Source of the DNA: Nymphaea colorata
Taxonomy: Eukaryota > Streptophyta > Magnoliopsida > Nymphaeales > Nymphaeaceae
Assembly (NCBI RefSeq): GCF_008831285.2
Contig: NC_045141.1
Span: forward strand, 21,014,848-21,078,847
Length of the DNA stretch: 64,000 nucleotides
Direction of reading: 5' to 3'
Shown here: positions 7,587-63,109 of the stretch, piece by piece
Numbering within the stretch: position 1 is the stretch's first letter
How the letters are laid out: each line of letters opens with the position of its first letter
Notes under the pieces: model-generated
Told to the model about the DNA's origin: nothing
Database searches by the model: none
What the model saw: the letters and a program-made list of their open reading frames with translations, nothing else
Program-made: the position numbers and the translations under genes

Positions 7587-8066
7587 ATGAAGAGCATAAC
7601 ATTCCTCCTCATCCTCATCGTAGCTATTGCCCTCTCCATGTGCATAGCGGGTGCCAGAGACCTATCCGAAGACCATCGTAAGGAGCACGAGCATGACCAC
7701 CGTGAGACGCATTTAGACCATCACCATGAGAAGGATCACAAAGATGGCCACCATCCGCATGGCCCACATGAGGAGCATCATGAAGTACATGATCATAGGG
7801 ATCACAAGGACAATGAGAAGCATGAACATGACAAACGCGAGAAGGATCATAATGAGCATGAGCACGAGCATGAGCACGAGCACGAGCACGAGCACGAACA
7901 TGACAAACGCAAGCAGGAATATCGTAATGAGCATGACCATGACGAACACGAATACAAGAAGGATCATAAAGAGCACGACGTTGACCAACATAAGCAGCAT
8001 CACAAGAGGCACGATGATGACCATTATAAGAGGGATCATAAGCAGCATGATGGCCGTCATTATTGA
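7587..8066 (+). CDS. Secreted His-rich protein, type A (159 aa)
   Basis: Residues 1-23 form a signal peptide: Lys at 2, a Leu/Ile/Val/Ala core at 6-20, and Ala-Gly-Ala before Arg-Asp. The mature chain is very hydrophilic, with about 42 His in 136 residues and no Cys. Order: DHRKEHEHDH head; HHPHGPHEEHH around 56-65; a run of eight Glu-His pairs; a KRKQEYRNEHDHDEH module; and a tail ending DDDHYKRDHKQHDGRHY. The ATG is the first after the TATA box and lies at the signal-peptide start, so the start is firm. There is no intron, and an AATAAA lies at 8224. Entry into the secretory pathway is well supported. Binding of Zn, Ni or Cu ions is inferred from composition only; no enzyme motif is visible. 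Compared with the gene at 10985 it has Gln for Lys or Glu at several sites (KQEY, VDQH, HKQH). Confidence 0.88.
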   Translation: MKSITFLLILIVAIALSMCIAGARDLSEDHRKEHEHDHRETHLDHHHEKDHKDGHHPHGPHEEHHEVHDHRDHKDNEKHEHDKREKDHNEHEHEHEHEHEHEHEHDKRKQEYRNEHDHDEHEYKKDHKEHDVDQHKQHHKRHDDDHYKRDHKQHDGRHY

Positions 8067-9600
8067 TCATGCTTTGCAAGAGAGTAGTGCATCTCTATTG
8101 TGTTGAGCTGCATGCTTTTGTTGTCTGATTTGCTTTTGCTATTCAGTTTTGTCGATGATTATGTTAAATAAGTGAATGCTACACAATTGCAGTGAGACGG
8201 CTACATATAATATGAAGGAGTTCAATAAAACAAGCCGTTGCCTTGTATCTAGGAAATGACTATTTTATTCCCACTCATCTTTGTTGTGGATGCATATCGG
8301 CATAGGTCTTTTACTCGTAGGTTGACTACATAGTAAGACTCTCTTCATATTGACTCTCTCTCCAGAAACCTTCCTTTGTGGCAACCGTAAGGATTTTTTT
8401 TCCGCTCTTAAAACACTTAGGGGCCACTGGACATAATTAGGAGCAAGATAAGAGTGTGATAGCATATATTGACTGGTTGATATGTGAATTCTTTTGGTTT
8501 ACCTTTCCTTGATAGCATATATGGCCATTATCACTTCTTGCCACTTCTCATCAATGTATATGCGTTTATTATCGATACTGAGAACAACAAAATATTTGTC
8601 CTTCACGATGGCCCCTGGGTATATCCCTGGCTCCTGCTAGGCATATGCATAGGGAAATGGCTACGACTAGAAGGAGTAGGAGTGCAGTGCTCCGCATTTT
8701 TGCAGAGAGGGAGGCAGTGAAGTGGGCAAGGAGAGGCAATGGTAGAGAATAAGAGCATAGAAGTCGATGGATAATGAAAAGACATTACAACCCCTTTATA
8801 TAAAGAGGTAGACATGTGCTAACAATTTGAACGAGCTGCTACATTCCCAAAGACATGATGAACGTGCATGCACGCACAATACCTACTCATACGGCTTCGT
8901 TGAGGCCCTCGACAGCAGATATATTCTTCTTCAAGTTCTATTTTGAATTATTAATCCTTGATTGGCATGTTGATATTTTGATTTTTTTTGGTGGTTGACC
9001 ATTCCTTGATTGCATATATGGCCATTATCACTTCTTGCAATTTCTCATCAACATATATGGGTTTGTTTTCGATGCTGAGAATAACGAAATATTTGTCCTT
9101 CACTCCGACCTGTTATTATGTTGTTGTACACGCTGACGTTTTGCTTGCCCATAGAAAAGCGGCATGTTATTAGAAGGCAAATTGCTATTTTGGGACGAGA
9201 TCAATCCTAAAAGTACAGATTTTTGTTAAAATGAATGCTTGAAACATACAAAAAAGCTGCCTGATTTGTTTCTGATATCCAACGAGTTTTTTTCCTTACA
9301 TGTATAAATATTATATCGTTGTGTTATTTCCTTAAGTAATTCTTTTGTTGTTTTTTATGATCATCTTCGTGTGTGGGTGAACTAGCTACTTATGGAACTT
9401 AAAGCATGCGTACGTCCGTGATCGTTTCAAAACCTTTCCCATATTGAAAATGATATACTGCTCCTACTATCACATCATGTCCTTTGGTTTCTTGTCTTAG
9501 ATGGTTCTTGCGGTCATGGTAAACGTGCATGTCCACCCATGGTAGACGACTATACCCATTGGCATTCAATTTCTTGGCAGCAGCACGCATCTTACTTCTA

Positions 9601-9860
9601 TATAAAATCTCCAAATCCGTAACAGTCTCTGTCTATCAGTTCAACTTCTGGCTGCCTCTCCTACAACCAAGCGGTAGCTAGGTGTCAGTGATCCATCTAG
9701 GAAATTCCACAAACTGAAATTGACTGCAATGAAAGTACTGGGCTACAGGCCTCCAGCACACAATATGATGAAGAAGACGCTGGAGTGGACTTTGTATTTG
9801 TTTAATAGATCAGATACTGACGCGTTGTGTTCACGAGGAGCCACTAATTTGCCAAGCTGA
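9601..9860 (+). pseudogene. Relic of second small-peptide family, C-terminal part
   Basis: Unit b copy of the 6242-6503 relic. It keeps the TATA (about 9599-9606) and the open C-terminal segment RKFHKLKLTAMKV through LEWTLYLFN to TGA at 9858-9860. An ATG-led N-terminus is absent. Confidence 0.45.
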
Positions 9861-10138
9861 AAAGATACTTGAGTTGAACGTGATGAGCATAACAAGATGG
9901 AGTAAAAGGAAGAGGTTTGGCAGCCGACCGCTCGAGTTGAATATATAAGGGAATCAACTGTTGAGGGCCCAGAATATTTTAGTGTGCATATCTAAAAGCG
10001 AAATGCAGATCCACTTCGAACTCGCTGGGTAAATGCGTGGACAATATCAGCCGATCGCTGTGAGAAGCCACCCATAACTAAATCTAGGTGTTTTCATGGA
10101 CCTGTGGTTCAAAACTGCATCAAGATGAGAAAAAGTTG

Positions 10139-10337
10139 CATGTACCGTTGCGCATGGTGCACAGTAAAAGAGCAATGAGCATTTTGTAATTTTTAAAAAA
10201 GAAATATATTTTTGTAGATTTTTTTTCTTTTTTCTATTTCCATTTTTATGTTAAGAAAAAGTTTTTTTTTTTTAAGTTTGAACTGACGATATTTTAGTCA
10301 TTAATTACACTGGTGCATAAAAATTCATGCACGAGTA
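10139..10337. repeat. Hairpin-ended AT-rich element (MITE-like)
   Basis: A GC-rich head hairpin (gtaccgttgcgcatggtgca) is followed by tgtaattttt and an AT-rich core. The element then has attttagtcatt and a tail hairpin actggtgca...tgcacgagt. Related sequences sit at 20696, 40160, 46336 and 61577, and, at a different site in the unit, at 17266. No transposase. Non-autonomous element is the best guess. Confidence 0.45.
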
Positions 10338-10444
10338 TGACACATATGACCTAATAACAAAAGTGGTGCCACTTCATTTCCAAGACGGGGAAGATTGAAA
10401 GAAGGAACAAATGCTTTCAAAACTTTCATACTCCTTGACCATTA

Positions 10445-61234: not shown

Positions 61235-61874
61235 AAAGATACTTGAGTTGAACGTGATAAGCATAACAAGATGGAGTAAAAGGAAGAGGTTTGGCAGCCG
61301 ACCGCTCAAGTTGAATATAAGGGAATCAACTGTTGAGGGCCCAGAATATTTTAGTGTGCATATCTAAAAGCGAAATGCAGATCCACTTCGAACTCGCTGG
61401 GTAAATGCGTGGACAATATCAGCCGATCGCTATGAGAAGCCACCCATAACTAAATCTAGGTGTTTTCATGGACCTCTGGTTCAAAACTGGACCCTGGTAT
61501 CGCCTTCCGTGATTGCGCATGAAATTTATTACCTCACCACATCAACGAGATCACGACCGGCATTAAGACCAGAAAAGGTTGCGTGCCGTTGTGTACGGTA
61601 CAACGTGGAATGGGTATTTTTGTAATTTTAAAACAATGTCTTTTATAGTTTTTATTTTTATTTTTTCTATTTTTATTGAATATTTTACCCATTAACTATA
61701 ATGATGCACGAAAATTCATGCATAGTATGACTCATATAACCTAATAATAGCAGTGATGCCGTTGTCATTTCCAAGTCGTGGAAGGTTGAAACAAGGAACC
61801 TATGGTGAATTTAGTTTTTTAGAGTCATTCAATCATTTAATAAGAAAAAAAAGAAAAAGGCAATGAGAATTTCT

Positions 61875-61949
61875 AATATATATATATATATATATATATA
61901 AGAATTTCTAATATATATATATATATATATAAAGAGAGAGAGAGAGAGA
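61875..61949. repeat. Microsatellites (TA)n and (GA)n
   Basis: Two TA tracts (61875-61900, 61910-61931) separated by agaatttcta, followed by (GA)n. A short unit ttctaatatata flanks both TA tracts. Confidence 0.9.
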
Positions 61950-62424
61950 ATAGTGGGACATCTTAGACAAATTTTGACAAGTCTTTTCAATTCTTTTTTA
62001 GTTTATTTTAGAAGAATACATATATTAAGGTTTGATCACTCGCCTAAATTGACAATTTACTCTTCTTAGATGTACCATTTTGGCACTCAAGAAAAGGGTC
62101 AAAGCCTTAAAAACAACTTAATAAGTGGCCGGTCCAAGCAAAAGGAAAAAGTTTCTTAATTAATTCGGATCAATGTCTGACAATTGAATATGTCGAAAAA
62201 TGGGAATGGCAAACATGCTAACAAGGAAAGGTCAACCACTAAAACAATTTAAACTTTCAACCAAGTCAATCTGCGGACAACAACTCAAAAGTAAACTTCT
62301 TGAATCACGTCGTGGAAACCTCATCGAAGCAATATGATTTAGACTCGTGCATGCTTGCACGTCTTCGTTACTTTGAGAATATGATACGTCAATCAAATTA
62401 CTAGTACATACATCGCTACTTCTC

Positions 62425-62432
62425 TATATAAA
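62425..62432 (+). promoter_or_regulatory. TATA box of the gene at 62531
   Basis: tatataaa, 99-106 bases before the ATG. Confidence 0.8.
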
Positions 62433-62530
62433 GGAGTCCACATCGCTCTTTGTTATCCATTCGCAAATTCCCCTTCTTCTCAGCTGCTTTCTTTCCTCAC
62501 CCTCCCAAGCTCCTCTGATCTTGTGCAAAA

Positions 62531-63109
62531 ATGAAGAGCACAACATTCCACCTCATCCTCATCGTAGCTATTGCCCTCTCCGTATGCATAGCGGGTGCCA
62601 GAGACCTATCCAAAGACCATCGTAAGGAGCATGAGCATGACCACCGTGAGATGCATTTAGACCATCACCATGAGAAGGATCACAAAGATGGCCCACATGA
62701 GGGGCATCATGAAGTGCATGATCATAGGGATCACAAGGACAATGAGAAGCATGAACATGACAAACGCGAGAAGGATCATAATGAGCATGAGCACGAGCAC
62801 GAGCATGACAAACACAAGAAGGATCATAAAGAGCACGACGATGACGAACATAAGCAGCATCACAAGGTGCATGATGATGATAAACACAAGAAGGATCACA
62901 AGACTAAGCATGACGACGACAAACACGAAAAGCATCATAAAGAGCATGATGATGACAGACATAAGAAAGAACACAAGGATCATCATGATGAGAAACACAA
63001 GAAGGATCATAATGAGCATCATGATAACAAACATGAGCCAGCTCACAAGAGGCACGATGATGACCATTATAAGAGGGATCATAAGGAGCATGATGGCCAT
63101 CATTATTGA
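62531..63109 (+). CDS. Secreted His-rich protein, A/B hybrid (192 aa)
   Basis: Signal peptide MKSTTFHLILIVAIALSVCI with a His at position 7, unusual inside the hydrophobic core. The head is type A (RDLSKDHRKEHEHDHREMHL). The HHPHG segment is deleted (KDGPHEGHHEVH). A short Glu-His run of four pairs follows (NEHEHEHEHDKHKKDH). The rest is type B: EHDDDEHKQHHKVHDDDKH, KKDHKTKHDDDKHEKHHKEH, DDDRHKKEHKDHHDEKH, ending DDDHYKRDHKEHDGHHY. From about 62880 it is almost the same as the frameshifted copies at 44463 and 59645, so it is probably a recombinant, or keeps the ancestral order. AATGAA in the 3' UTR. Open throughout and likely functional. Confidence 0.87.
   Translation: MKSTTFHLILIVAIALSVCIAGARDLSKDHRKEHEHDHREMHLDHHHEKDHKDGPHEGHHEVHDHRDHKDNEKHEHDKREKDHNEHEHEHEHDKHKKDHKEHDDDEHKQHHKVHDDDKHKKDHKTKHDDDKHEKHHKEHDDDRHKKEHKDHHDEKHKKDHNEHHDNKHEPAHKRHDDDHYKRDHKEHDGHHY

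What the first reader, a model, noticed from the sequence alone, without database searches (positions are those of the whole stretch)
7587..63109. Tandem array of 16 secreted, extremely His-rich protein genes
Sixteen copies on one strand (ten open, six broken) of an intron-less gene with a conserved signal peptide and a chain of about 30% His fill most of 56 kb. I know of no named family with this layout (fixed A-G-A-R-D-L junction, Glu-His run or DDDKH modules, HDGRHY end). Many copies with kept promoters suggest selection for dosage, as for secreted metal-binding or defence-related proteins.
Basis: partly seen in the sequence, partly recalled or inferred. Interest (0 to 1): 0.82.

Follow-up and report, generated by a model that had tools for sequence, protein, structure and literature searches.

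The report
Plant histidine-rich secreted protein gene array
A plant chromosome carries a 75-kb run of closely related genes for small secreted-type proteins that are about one third histidine, most likely metal-soaking chains that work like known plant metal-binding proteins, although no expression or metal binding has been shown.

Summary
In detail: 16 plus-strand copies, 10 open and 6 broken, at the stated coordinates. The ten open genes encode eight distinct proteins: signal-peptide-like start, mature chain of 121-192 residues, 31-35% His, 0 or 1 Cys, no Pfam family. Much of the copy number comes from nested segmental duplications (0.08-1.7% substitutions). The array is larger than reported. 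In the host genome it spans C4:21,002,531-21,077,956, with 19 plus-strand copies (12 open) and a minus-strand subfamily whose intact member (294 aa, 27% His) is built of 12-residue HKEHDDDKHKKD-like modules. Three genome searches found one further, decayed copy on C2. Constraint is significant in 6 of 15 sequence pairs, not in nine. Best explanation: a disordered, secreted, pH-sensitive metal-binding chain. It would work like metallohistins, shepherin or His-rich defensins, but is no member: it lacks the glycine of the first two and the cysteines of the third. Dosage selection is not shown. Expression, secretion and metal binding are untested. Ordinary in kind, unusual in sequence and layout.

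The parts
7587..8066 (+). HRP gene, open, 159 aa, Glu-His-run type
10985..11470 (+). HRP gene, open, 161 aa, Glu-His-run type
13552..13934 (+). HRP copy, broken: no 5' end or signal peptide
18705..19139 (+). HRP gene, open, 144 aa, Glu-His-run type, lacks the HDGRHY tail
21838..22024 (+). HRP copy, broken: 5' part only, stops at copia-type sequence (LTR start at 22025 inferred)
28443..28877 (+). HRP gene, open, protein identical to that of 18705
31558..31744 (+). HRP copy, broken as 21838
38162..38602 (+). HRP gene, open, 146 aa, Glu-His-run type
41217..41780 (+). HRP gene, open, 187 aa, DDDKH-module type
44463..45056 (+). HRP copy, broken: frame lost
47408..48055 (+). HRP gene, open, 215 aa, Glu-His-run type with internal 108-nt duplication
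52819..53259 (+). HRP gene, open, protein identical to that of 38162
53675..53896 (+). HRP copy, broken: no 5' end
56399..56962 (+). HRP gene, open, 187 aa, DDDKH-module type
59645..60233 (+). HRP copy, broken: frame lost
62531..63109 (+). HRP gene, open, 192 aa, DDDKH-module type
8572..8697 (-). signal-peptide remnant of the minus-strand subfamily
11976..12101 (-). signal-peptide remnant of the minus-strand subfamily
15088..40437 (.). 9.7-kb unit in tandem: two full copies and a partial third; subst/site 0.0008 and 0.0048
6740..13548 (.). 3.4-kb unit in tandem, subst/site 0.0172
40539..61489 (.). 5.8-kb block 40539-46314 repeated at 55720-61489, subst/site 0.0052

Best explanation
A family of secreted, intrinsically disordered His/Asp/Glu/Lys polyampholytes that act as multi-site, low-affinity chelators (buffers) of divalent transition metals, probably Zn, Cu or Ni, in the secretory path and cell wall. 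Shown by sequence: TATA box and, in most copies examined, a poly(A) signal; a signal-peptide-like start; no KDEL/HDEL-type tail; almost no Cys; 27-35% His in HxH, HxxH and HH spacings; repeated DDD next to His. Inferred: the signal peptide is cleaved after A-G-A, the chain is secreted unfolded, deprotonated His binds metal near neutral pH and lets go as the wall acidifies, while Asp/Glu keep binding harder cations. The ancestral unit is probably the 12-residue HKEHDDDKHKKD-like module; Glu-His runs are probably later hexanucleotide expansions. Copies multiply and die by unequal exchange, almost entirely at one locus.
For: Composition, and calculated net charge from +18..+39 at pH 5 to -7..-35 at pH 7 in the ten open window proteins, +64 to -2 in P0001. 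His spacings, and a 12-residue periodicity in the module-type chains and P0001. TATA at -106 to -124 in 10 of 10 copies examined, AATAAA 157-161 nt after the stop in 7 of 10. Identity is higher in the mature coding part than in the -500 to -130 flank in 12 of 15 pairs, and gaps are multiples of three in 90 of 150 (mature part) against 28 of 132 and 62 of 225 in two flanks; hexanucleotide repeats contribute to that. All five pairs with 18705 give pN/pS 0.04-0.19 (p 0.0006-0.011), and the true frame has the lowest pooled pN/pS (0.33) of six frames. The modules are also in the minus-strand protein and in the decayed C2 copy. His-rich plant proteins bind metals: metallohistins (review passage), shepherin I (abstract), His-rich defensins, 4 of 4 expressed (abstract).
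Against: No transcript, protein, localisation or metal-binding data. Nine of 15 pairs show no significant constraint, and 41217-62531 has pN/pS 1.23. Over whole coding sequences, dN/dS is 0.36-0.97 in the 15 pairs between run and module types, 0.69 and 0.71 in two pairs within the module type, and 41217-56399 differ by three nonsynonymous and no synonymous changes. In 3 of 15 pairs the mature part is not more alike than the upstream flank. His codons change less than D, E and K codons (37 of 601 against 90 of 1024), but rows are shared, each pair is counted twice, and CACG contexts may mutate faster. No zinc-deficiency element (recalled RTGTCGACAY) in any of 12 promoters. At wall pH near 5 most His would be protonated and bind Zn poorly.
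Confidence: 0.5

Rival explanations
1. Secreted antimicrobial or nutritional-immunity protein, like histatins, shepherins or His-rich defensins: induced on attack, it starves or damages microbes by metal capture, or acts as a polycation at acid wall pH.
For: Three or four W-box-like sites (recalled motif) within 600 bp in 6 of 12 promoters. Only 2.7% of 2296 overlapping flank windows hold 3 or more and 0.8% hold 4 or more; of six promoters laid out, 7587, 10985, 47408 and 62531 share sites at about -300 and -267, 41217 has one at -268 and 18705 has neither. P0001 is calculated at +64 at pH 5. Fast gene birth and death. Shepherin I-Zn fibrils are antifungal (abstract); two of four His-rich defensins were antifungal (abstract).
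Against: 14 motifs were tested and the promoters are not independent. The other 6 of 12 promoters have one W-box-like site. 30-38% Asp/Glu makes the plus-strand chains between -7 and +14 at pH 6 and negative at pH 7.
Confidence: 0.2
2. Decaying, largely neutral locus: array growth by unequal exchange and microsatellite slippage with little present function.
For: 6 of 16 window copies broken, a decayed C2 copy, duplicated blocks only 0.08-1.7% apart, hexanucleotide-type runs, 9 of 15 pairs without significant constraint.
Against: 12 open plus-strand copies and one open minus-strand copy in the extended array. Low pN/pS in all five 18705 pairs. dN/dS 0-0.27 in the ten pairs within the Glu-His-run type (one of them is an alignment effect).
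Confidence: 0.2
3. Calcium- or wall-binding structural protein: an acidic/basic polyampholyte that sticks to pectin and calcium in the wall.
For: DDD runs, 30-38% Asp/Glu plus 16-24% Lys/Arg, secretion-type start.
Against: His at about a third is not needed for calcium or pectin binding. No Pfam match at its cut-off.
Confidence: 0.1
4. Part of the copy number is an assembly artefact (uncollapsed haplotypes).
For: Units 15088-24836 and 24837-34556 differ by 8 substitutions and 4 gap openings in 9.7 kb.
Against: The other compared blocks differ by 0.16-1.7% and have distinct junctions. No N in the window or the fetched C4 flanks. With one 9.7-kb unit removed, 14 of 16 window copies remain.
Confidence: 0.2

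Closest known systems
Metallohistins of Alnus glutinosa nodules (Gupta 2002, Pawlowski 1997; seen only as passages and references in PMC11534348 and PMC3292144, originals not read)
   Same: Plant, His-rich, a gene family; metal capture is the reported function. (A signal peptide in the Alnus proteins is recalled, not seen.)
   Different: They are glycine- and histidine-rich (title in a reference list); here Gly is 1.6-4.1% and the chain is Asp/Glu/Lys-rich with 12-residue modules or Glu-His runs. Sequence relationship could not be tested; the Alnus sequences are not held.
Shepherin I (Capsella bursa-pastoris; abstract and introduction of PMC10698721)
   Same: Plant, similar His share (28.6% in shepherin I).
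   Different: Shepherin I is 67.9% Gly in GGH repeats and 28 residues long; here Gly is at most 4.1% and mature chains are 121-271 residues.
Histidine-rich defensins (abstract and section 3.5 of PMC7557933)
   Same: Plant, His-enriched; metal binding demonstrated there.
   Different: Defensins have eight conserved Cys; here 0 or 1 Cys in the ten open window proteins and 2 in P0001.
Glycine-rich protein family PF07172
   Same: Signal peptide followed by an ARDL/AREL-like junction (recalled).
   Different: No match to this family in the Pfam scans.

Membership tests
Metallohistins | His-rich chain in a plant protein family | tested here: met
   26.6-35.0% His in 11 proteins measured; plant origin itself is inferred
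Metallohistins | glycine-rich as well as histidine-rich | tested here: not met
   Gly 1.6-4.1% in 11 of 11 proteins measured
Metallohistins | binds Zn, Ni, Co, Cu, Cd, Hg | not testable with these tools
   needs purified protein
Metallohistins | nodule expression | not testable with these tools
Metallohistins | sequence homology to the Alnus proteins | not tested
   their sequences are not held
Shepherins | Gly-Gly-His repeats | tested here: not met
   Gly at most 4.1%
Histidine-rich defensins | eight conserved Cys | tested here: not met
   0 or 1 Cys in the ten open window proteins, 2 in P0001
PF07172 glycine-rich protein | match to the Pfam model | tested here: not met
   not listed (max E 10) or 49 (max E 1); HMMER's filters drop most matches above E 0.1
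Histatins | small, cationic His-rich peptide (abstract start in the listing) | tested here: not met
   mature chains 121-271 residues; calculated net charge at pH 7 is -2 to -35

The most novel reading that the evidence does not exclude
A lineage-specific apoplastic metal sponge built by two-level amplification: a 12-residue His/Asp module multiplied inside the gene and the gene multiplied at one locus. It would be expressed on attack and disarm microbes or buffer the wall by pH-switched metal capture, a way of using histidine chains distinct from the Gly-His metallohistins and from Cys-based defensins.
Probability: 0.17. Interest if true: 0.7.

Novelty: new variant of a known kind. Interest (0 to 1): 0.42.

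Why it matters
If expressed and metal-binding, this would be a sequence-distinct class of secreted plant metal chelator without glycine or cysteine richness. The array gives natural variants, from 121 to 271 mature residues and from Glu-His runs to DDDKH modules, with which to relate chain design to metal affinity. It would also be a clear case of copy number and repeat number evolving together at a single plant locus.

Tried and rejected
Pfam scans of five window proteins, of four N-terminal pieces and of three left-flank proteins gave nothing at its cut-off. Low-complexity hits such as PFF1_TM at E 0.0005-0.013 lie below the curated cut-off and are rejected. The PDB sequence search with P0001 gave one chance match at E = 0.24. 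ARAGORN found no tRNA gene. Synteny between the C2 copy and C4: only family-member and copia-type frames matched within 60 kb, so origin by whole-genome duplication is neither shown nor excluded.

Ten literature searches listed no paper whose title or abstract start describes this layout. They cover open-licence papers only, match words, and list at most 25 papers each; the lists of 27 and 75 were dominated by unrelated papers. Five papers were opened: PMC10698721 (abstract, introduction), PMC7557933 (abstract, section 3.5), and passages only of PMC11534348, PMC3292144 and PMC4531530 (the last: one reference).

The plant's name could not be found. Plant origin is inferred from Ty1-copia elements and fits flank genes such as alternative oxidase. 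No plant genome other than the host's own was available. A promoter scan of 14 recalled motifs gave the W-box-like excess and an excess of the short words GTAC and CATGC, treated as weak.

Rows dropped: one search used 6 of the 8 distinct open window proteins for pair tests, and its Fisher tests round fractional counts and skip stop codons in other frames. One search used 6 of 10 loaded copies for identities. In one search, two of nine planned pairs (with a piece of 59645) were not analysed because the piece was not located, so seven pairs were counted. The 4 synonymous and 0 nonsynonymous differences between 18705 and 38162 are an alignment effect of one extra Glu-His unit and were not used as evidence.
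Full report
WHAT IS THERE. The window holds sixteen plus-strand copies of one gene: ten are open and six are broken. The ten open copies encode eight distinct proteins of 144-215 residues. The mature chain after the A-G-A junction is 121-192 residues long. It is 30.8-35.0% His, 30-38% Asp plus Glu and 16-24% Lys plus Arg, with no Cys in eight of ten and one Cys in two. All ten share the signal-peptide-like start and the ARDL junction. Five of ten end in HDGRHY, one in HDGHHY, and four have lost that tail and end in DDGHHH. A TATA box lies 106-124 bases before the ATG in 10 of 10 copies examined (eight open, two broken). AATAAA lies 157-161 bases after the stop in 7 of 10; 44463, 59645 and 62531 lack it within 260 bases. 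The open frame needs no intron.

THE ARRAY IS LARGER AND TWO-STRANDED. The host genome is held (408 Mb, 783 contigs) and the window is C4:21,014,848-21,078,847. With the 161-aa protein as query, 30 of 30 matched stretches at E <= 0.001 lie between C4:21,006,883 and 21,077,659. Left of the window are three further plus copies: window -7964 (open, 147 aa), -6956 (broken) and -1199 (open, 167 aa). That makes 19 plus copies, 12 open. On the minus strand is an intact sister gene, P0001, of 294 aa at C4:21,010,460-21,011,341, with a broken relative at about 21,002,531-21,003,389. P0001 is 26.6% His in its mature part and consists largely of 12-residue units such as HKEHDDDKHKKD. Its signal peptide survives as remnants in the window at 8697-8572 and 12101-11976 and just outside at -65. 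With that remnant as query, 21 of 21 matches in the genome at E <= 1 lie in this cluster. P0001 gives 21 matches at E <= 0.001, 20 in the cluster and one at C2:33,871,999-33,872,682. The C2 copy is decayed, with no open start and its open pieces in more than one frame. It still shows the His-rich modules, so the module probably predates the array. These genome searches score only the best candidates, so counts are lower bounds.

The cluster spans C4:21,002,531-21,077,956, about 75 kb. It sits between a replication protein A-like frame on the left (PF08646) and Clp protease, amino-acid permease and alternative oxidase frames on the right.

HOW IT GREW. Within the window, a 9.7-kb unit occurs as two full copies and a partial third (15088-40437). 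Blocks 13552-19571 and 40539-46314 recur at 47673-53691 and 55720-61489, and a 3.4-kb unit is repeated at 6740-13548. Substitutions per site are 0.0008 between the first two 9.7-kb units, and 0.0016, 0.0048, 0.0052, 0.0087 and 0.0172 in the five other comparisons. The first value is low enough that an assembly duplication cannot be excluded. Trees of 5' ends (16 rows) and 3' ends (17 rows) disagree: 44463 and 59645 group with the 18705 type at the 5' end (100/99) and with 62531 at the 3' end (100/98), so paralogues have exchanged sequence. Copies 21838 and 31558 stop near a sequence found at 22025 and 31745 that leads into copia-type frames; that it is the LTR start is inferred.

IS THE FRAME REAL. 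Over the shared 83-codon N-terminal block, pooled pN/pS is 0.33 in the reading frame and 0.51-0.99 in the five other frames (15 pairs from 6 sequences, not independent). All five pairs with 18705 are significant (ratio 0.04-0.19, p 0.0006-0.011), as is 7587-10985 (2 against 0, p 0.03). The other nine pairs are not, and 41217-62531 gives 1.23. Over whole coding sequences of eight proteins (28 pairs), dN/dS is 0-0.27 in the ten pairs within the Glu-His-run type, 0.36-0.97 in the 15 pairs between types, where the repeats align poorly, and 0.69 and 0.71 in two module-type pairs; 41217-56399 have three nonsynonymous and no synonymous changes. By region (15 pairs), the mature part is more alike than the -500 to -130 flank in 12 pairs, the TATA-5'UTR stretch in 13, and the first 180 bases after the stop are more alike than the next 320 in 15. 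The three exceptions for the mature part are 18705-44463, 41217-47408 and 47408-62531. Gaps are multiples of three in 90 of 150 in the mature part against 119 of 468, 28 of 132 and 62 of 225 in the flanks, to which hexanucleotide slippage contributes. His codons change amino acid less often (37 of 601) than Asp, Glu and Lys codons (90 of 1024) over seven pairs. Each pair was counted in both directions, rows are shared, and His codons also show more silent change, perhaps from CpG context, so this is only a hint.

HOW IT PROBABLY WORKS. Shown: secretion-type N-terminus, extreme charge density, His in HxH, HxxH and HH spacings, calculated net charge that swings from strongly positive at pH 5 to negative at pH 7. 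Inferred: a disordered secreted chain that takes up divalent transition metals through deprotonated His and is modulated by wall pH. Expression, cleavage, secretion and metal binding are untested. A defence role is a serious rival. Six of 12 promoters have three or four W-box-like sites within 600 bp, against 2.7% of flank windows with at least three; 14 recalled motifs were tried and the promoters are related.

COMPARISON. By function the nearest named class is the metallohistins of Alnus, described in a review passage as proteins that sequester Zn, Ni, Co, Cu, Cd and Hg in the nodule (PMC11534348) and named as His-rich metal binders in PMC3292144. The original papers were seen only as references. 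Their family was described as glycine- and histidine-rich (title in the reference list), and that feature is not met here. Shepherin I (28.6% His, 67.9% Gly; PMC10698721 introduction) forms Zn and Cu complexes (abstract), and His-rich defensins bind Ni and Zn (PMC7557933 section 3.5); both include antifungal members. Their defining features, Gly repeats and eight Cys, are not met here. So it may work like them but is not filed with them.

VERDICT. The metal-binding reading is plausible and unproven. The dosage argument does not hold as given. New variant of a known kind.

Noticed in passing
window -40 to 5359 (end repeats about -40 to 608 and 4690 to 5359): A Ty1-copia element whose end repeats are 95.2% alike over 670 bases lies between a minus-strand signal-peptide remnant at -65 and promoter-like sequence at 5410-5669, so it appears to have split that remnant.
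   Followed up: partly
window 17495-17614, 27233-27352, 36952-37071, 51609-51728: A plus-strand stretch with a signal-peptide-like segment and SARDVPK junction, weakly like the family (E 0.0005-0.005 in the window search), about 1.2 kb upstream of each of the four 18705-type genes; no His-rich continuation.
   Followed up: partly
window 8468-8606 and 5604-5746, 8961-9103, 12365-12507, 19637-19760, 29375-29498, 39100-39223, 54391-54514: A segment of about 124-143 bases downstream of the genes recurs and overlaps the sequence that follows the minus-strand signal-peptide remnants; origin unexplained.
   Followed up: no
host genome C2:33871999-33872682 (L024): A single decayed family member on another chromosome, with copia-type sequence about 10-15 kb away.
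   Followed up: partly
window 47591-47805: Internal tandem duplication of 108 bases (97% match) inside the open gene at 47408, adding 36 residues in frame.
   Followed up: no
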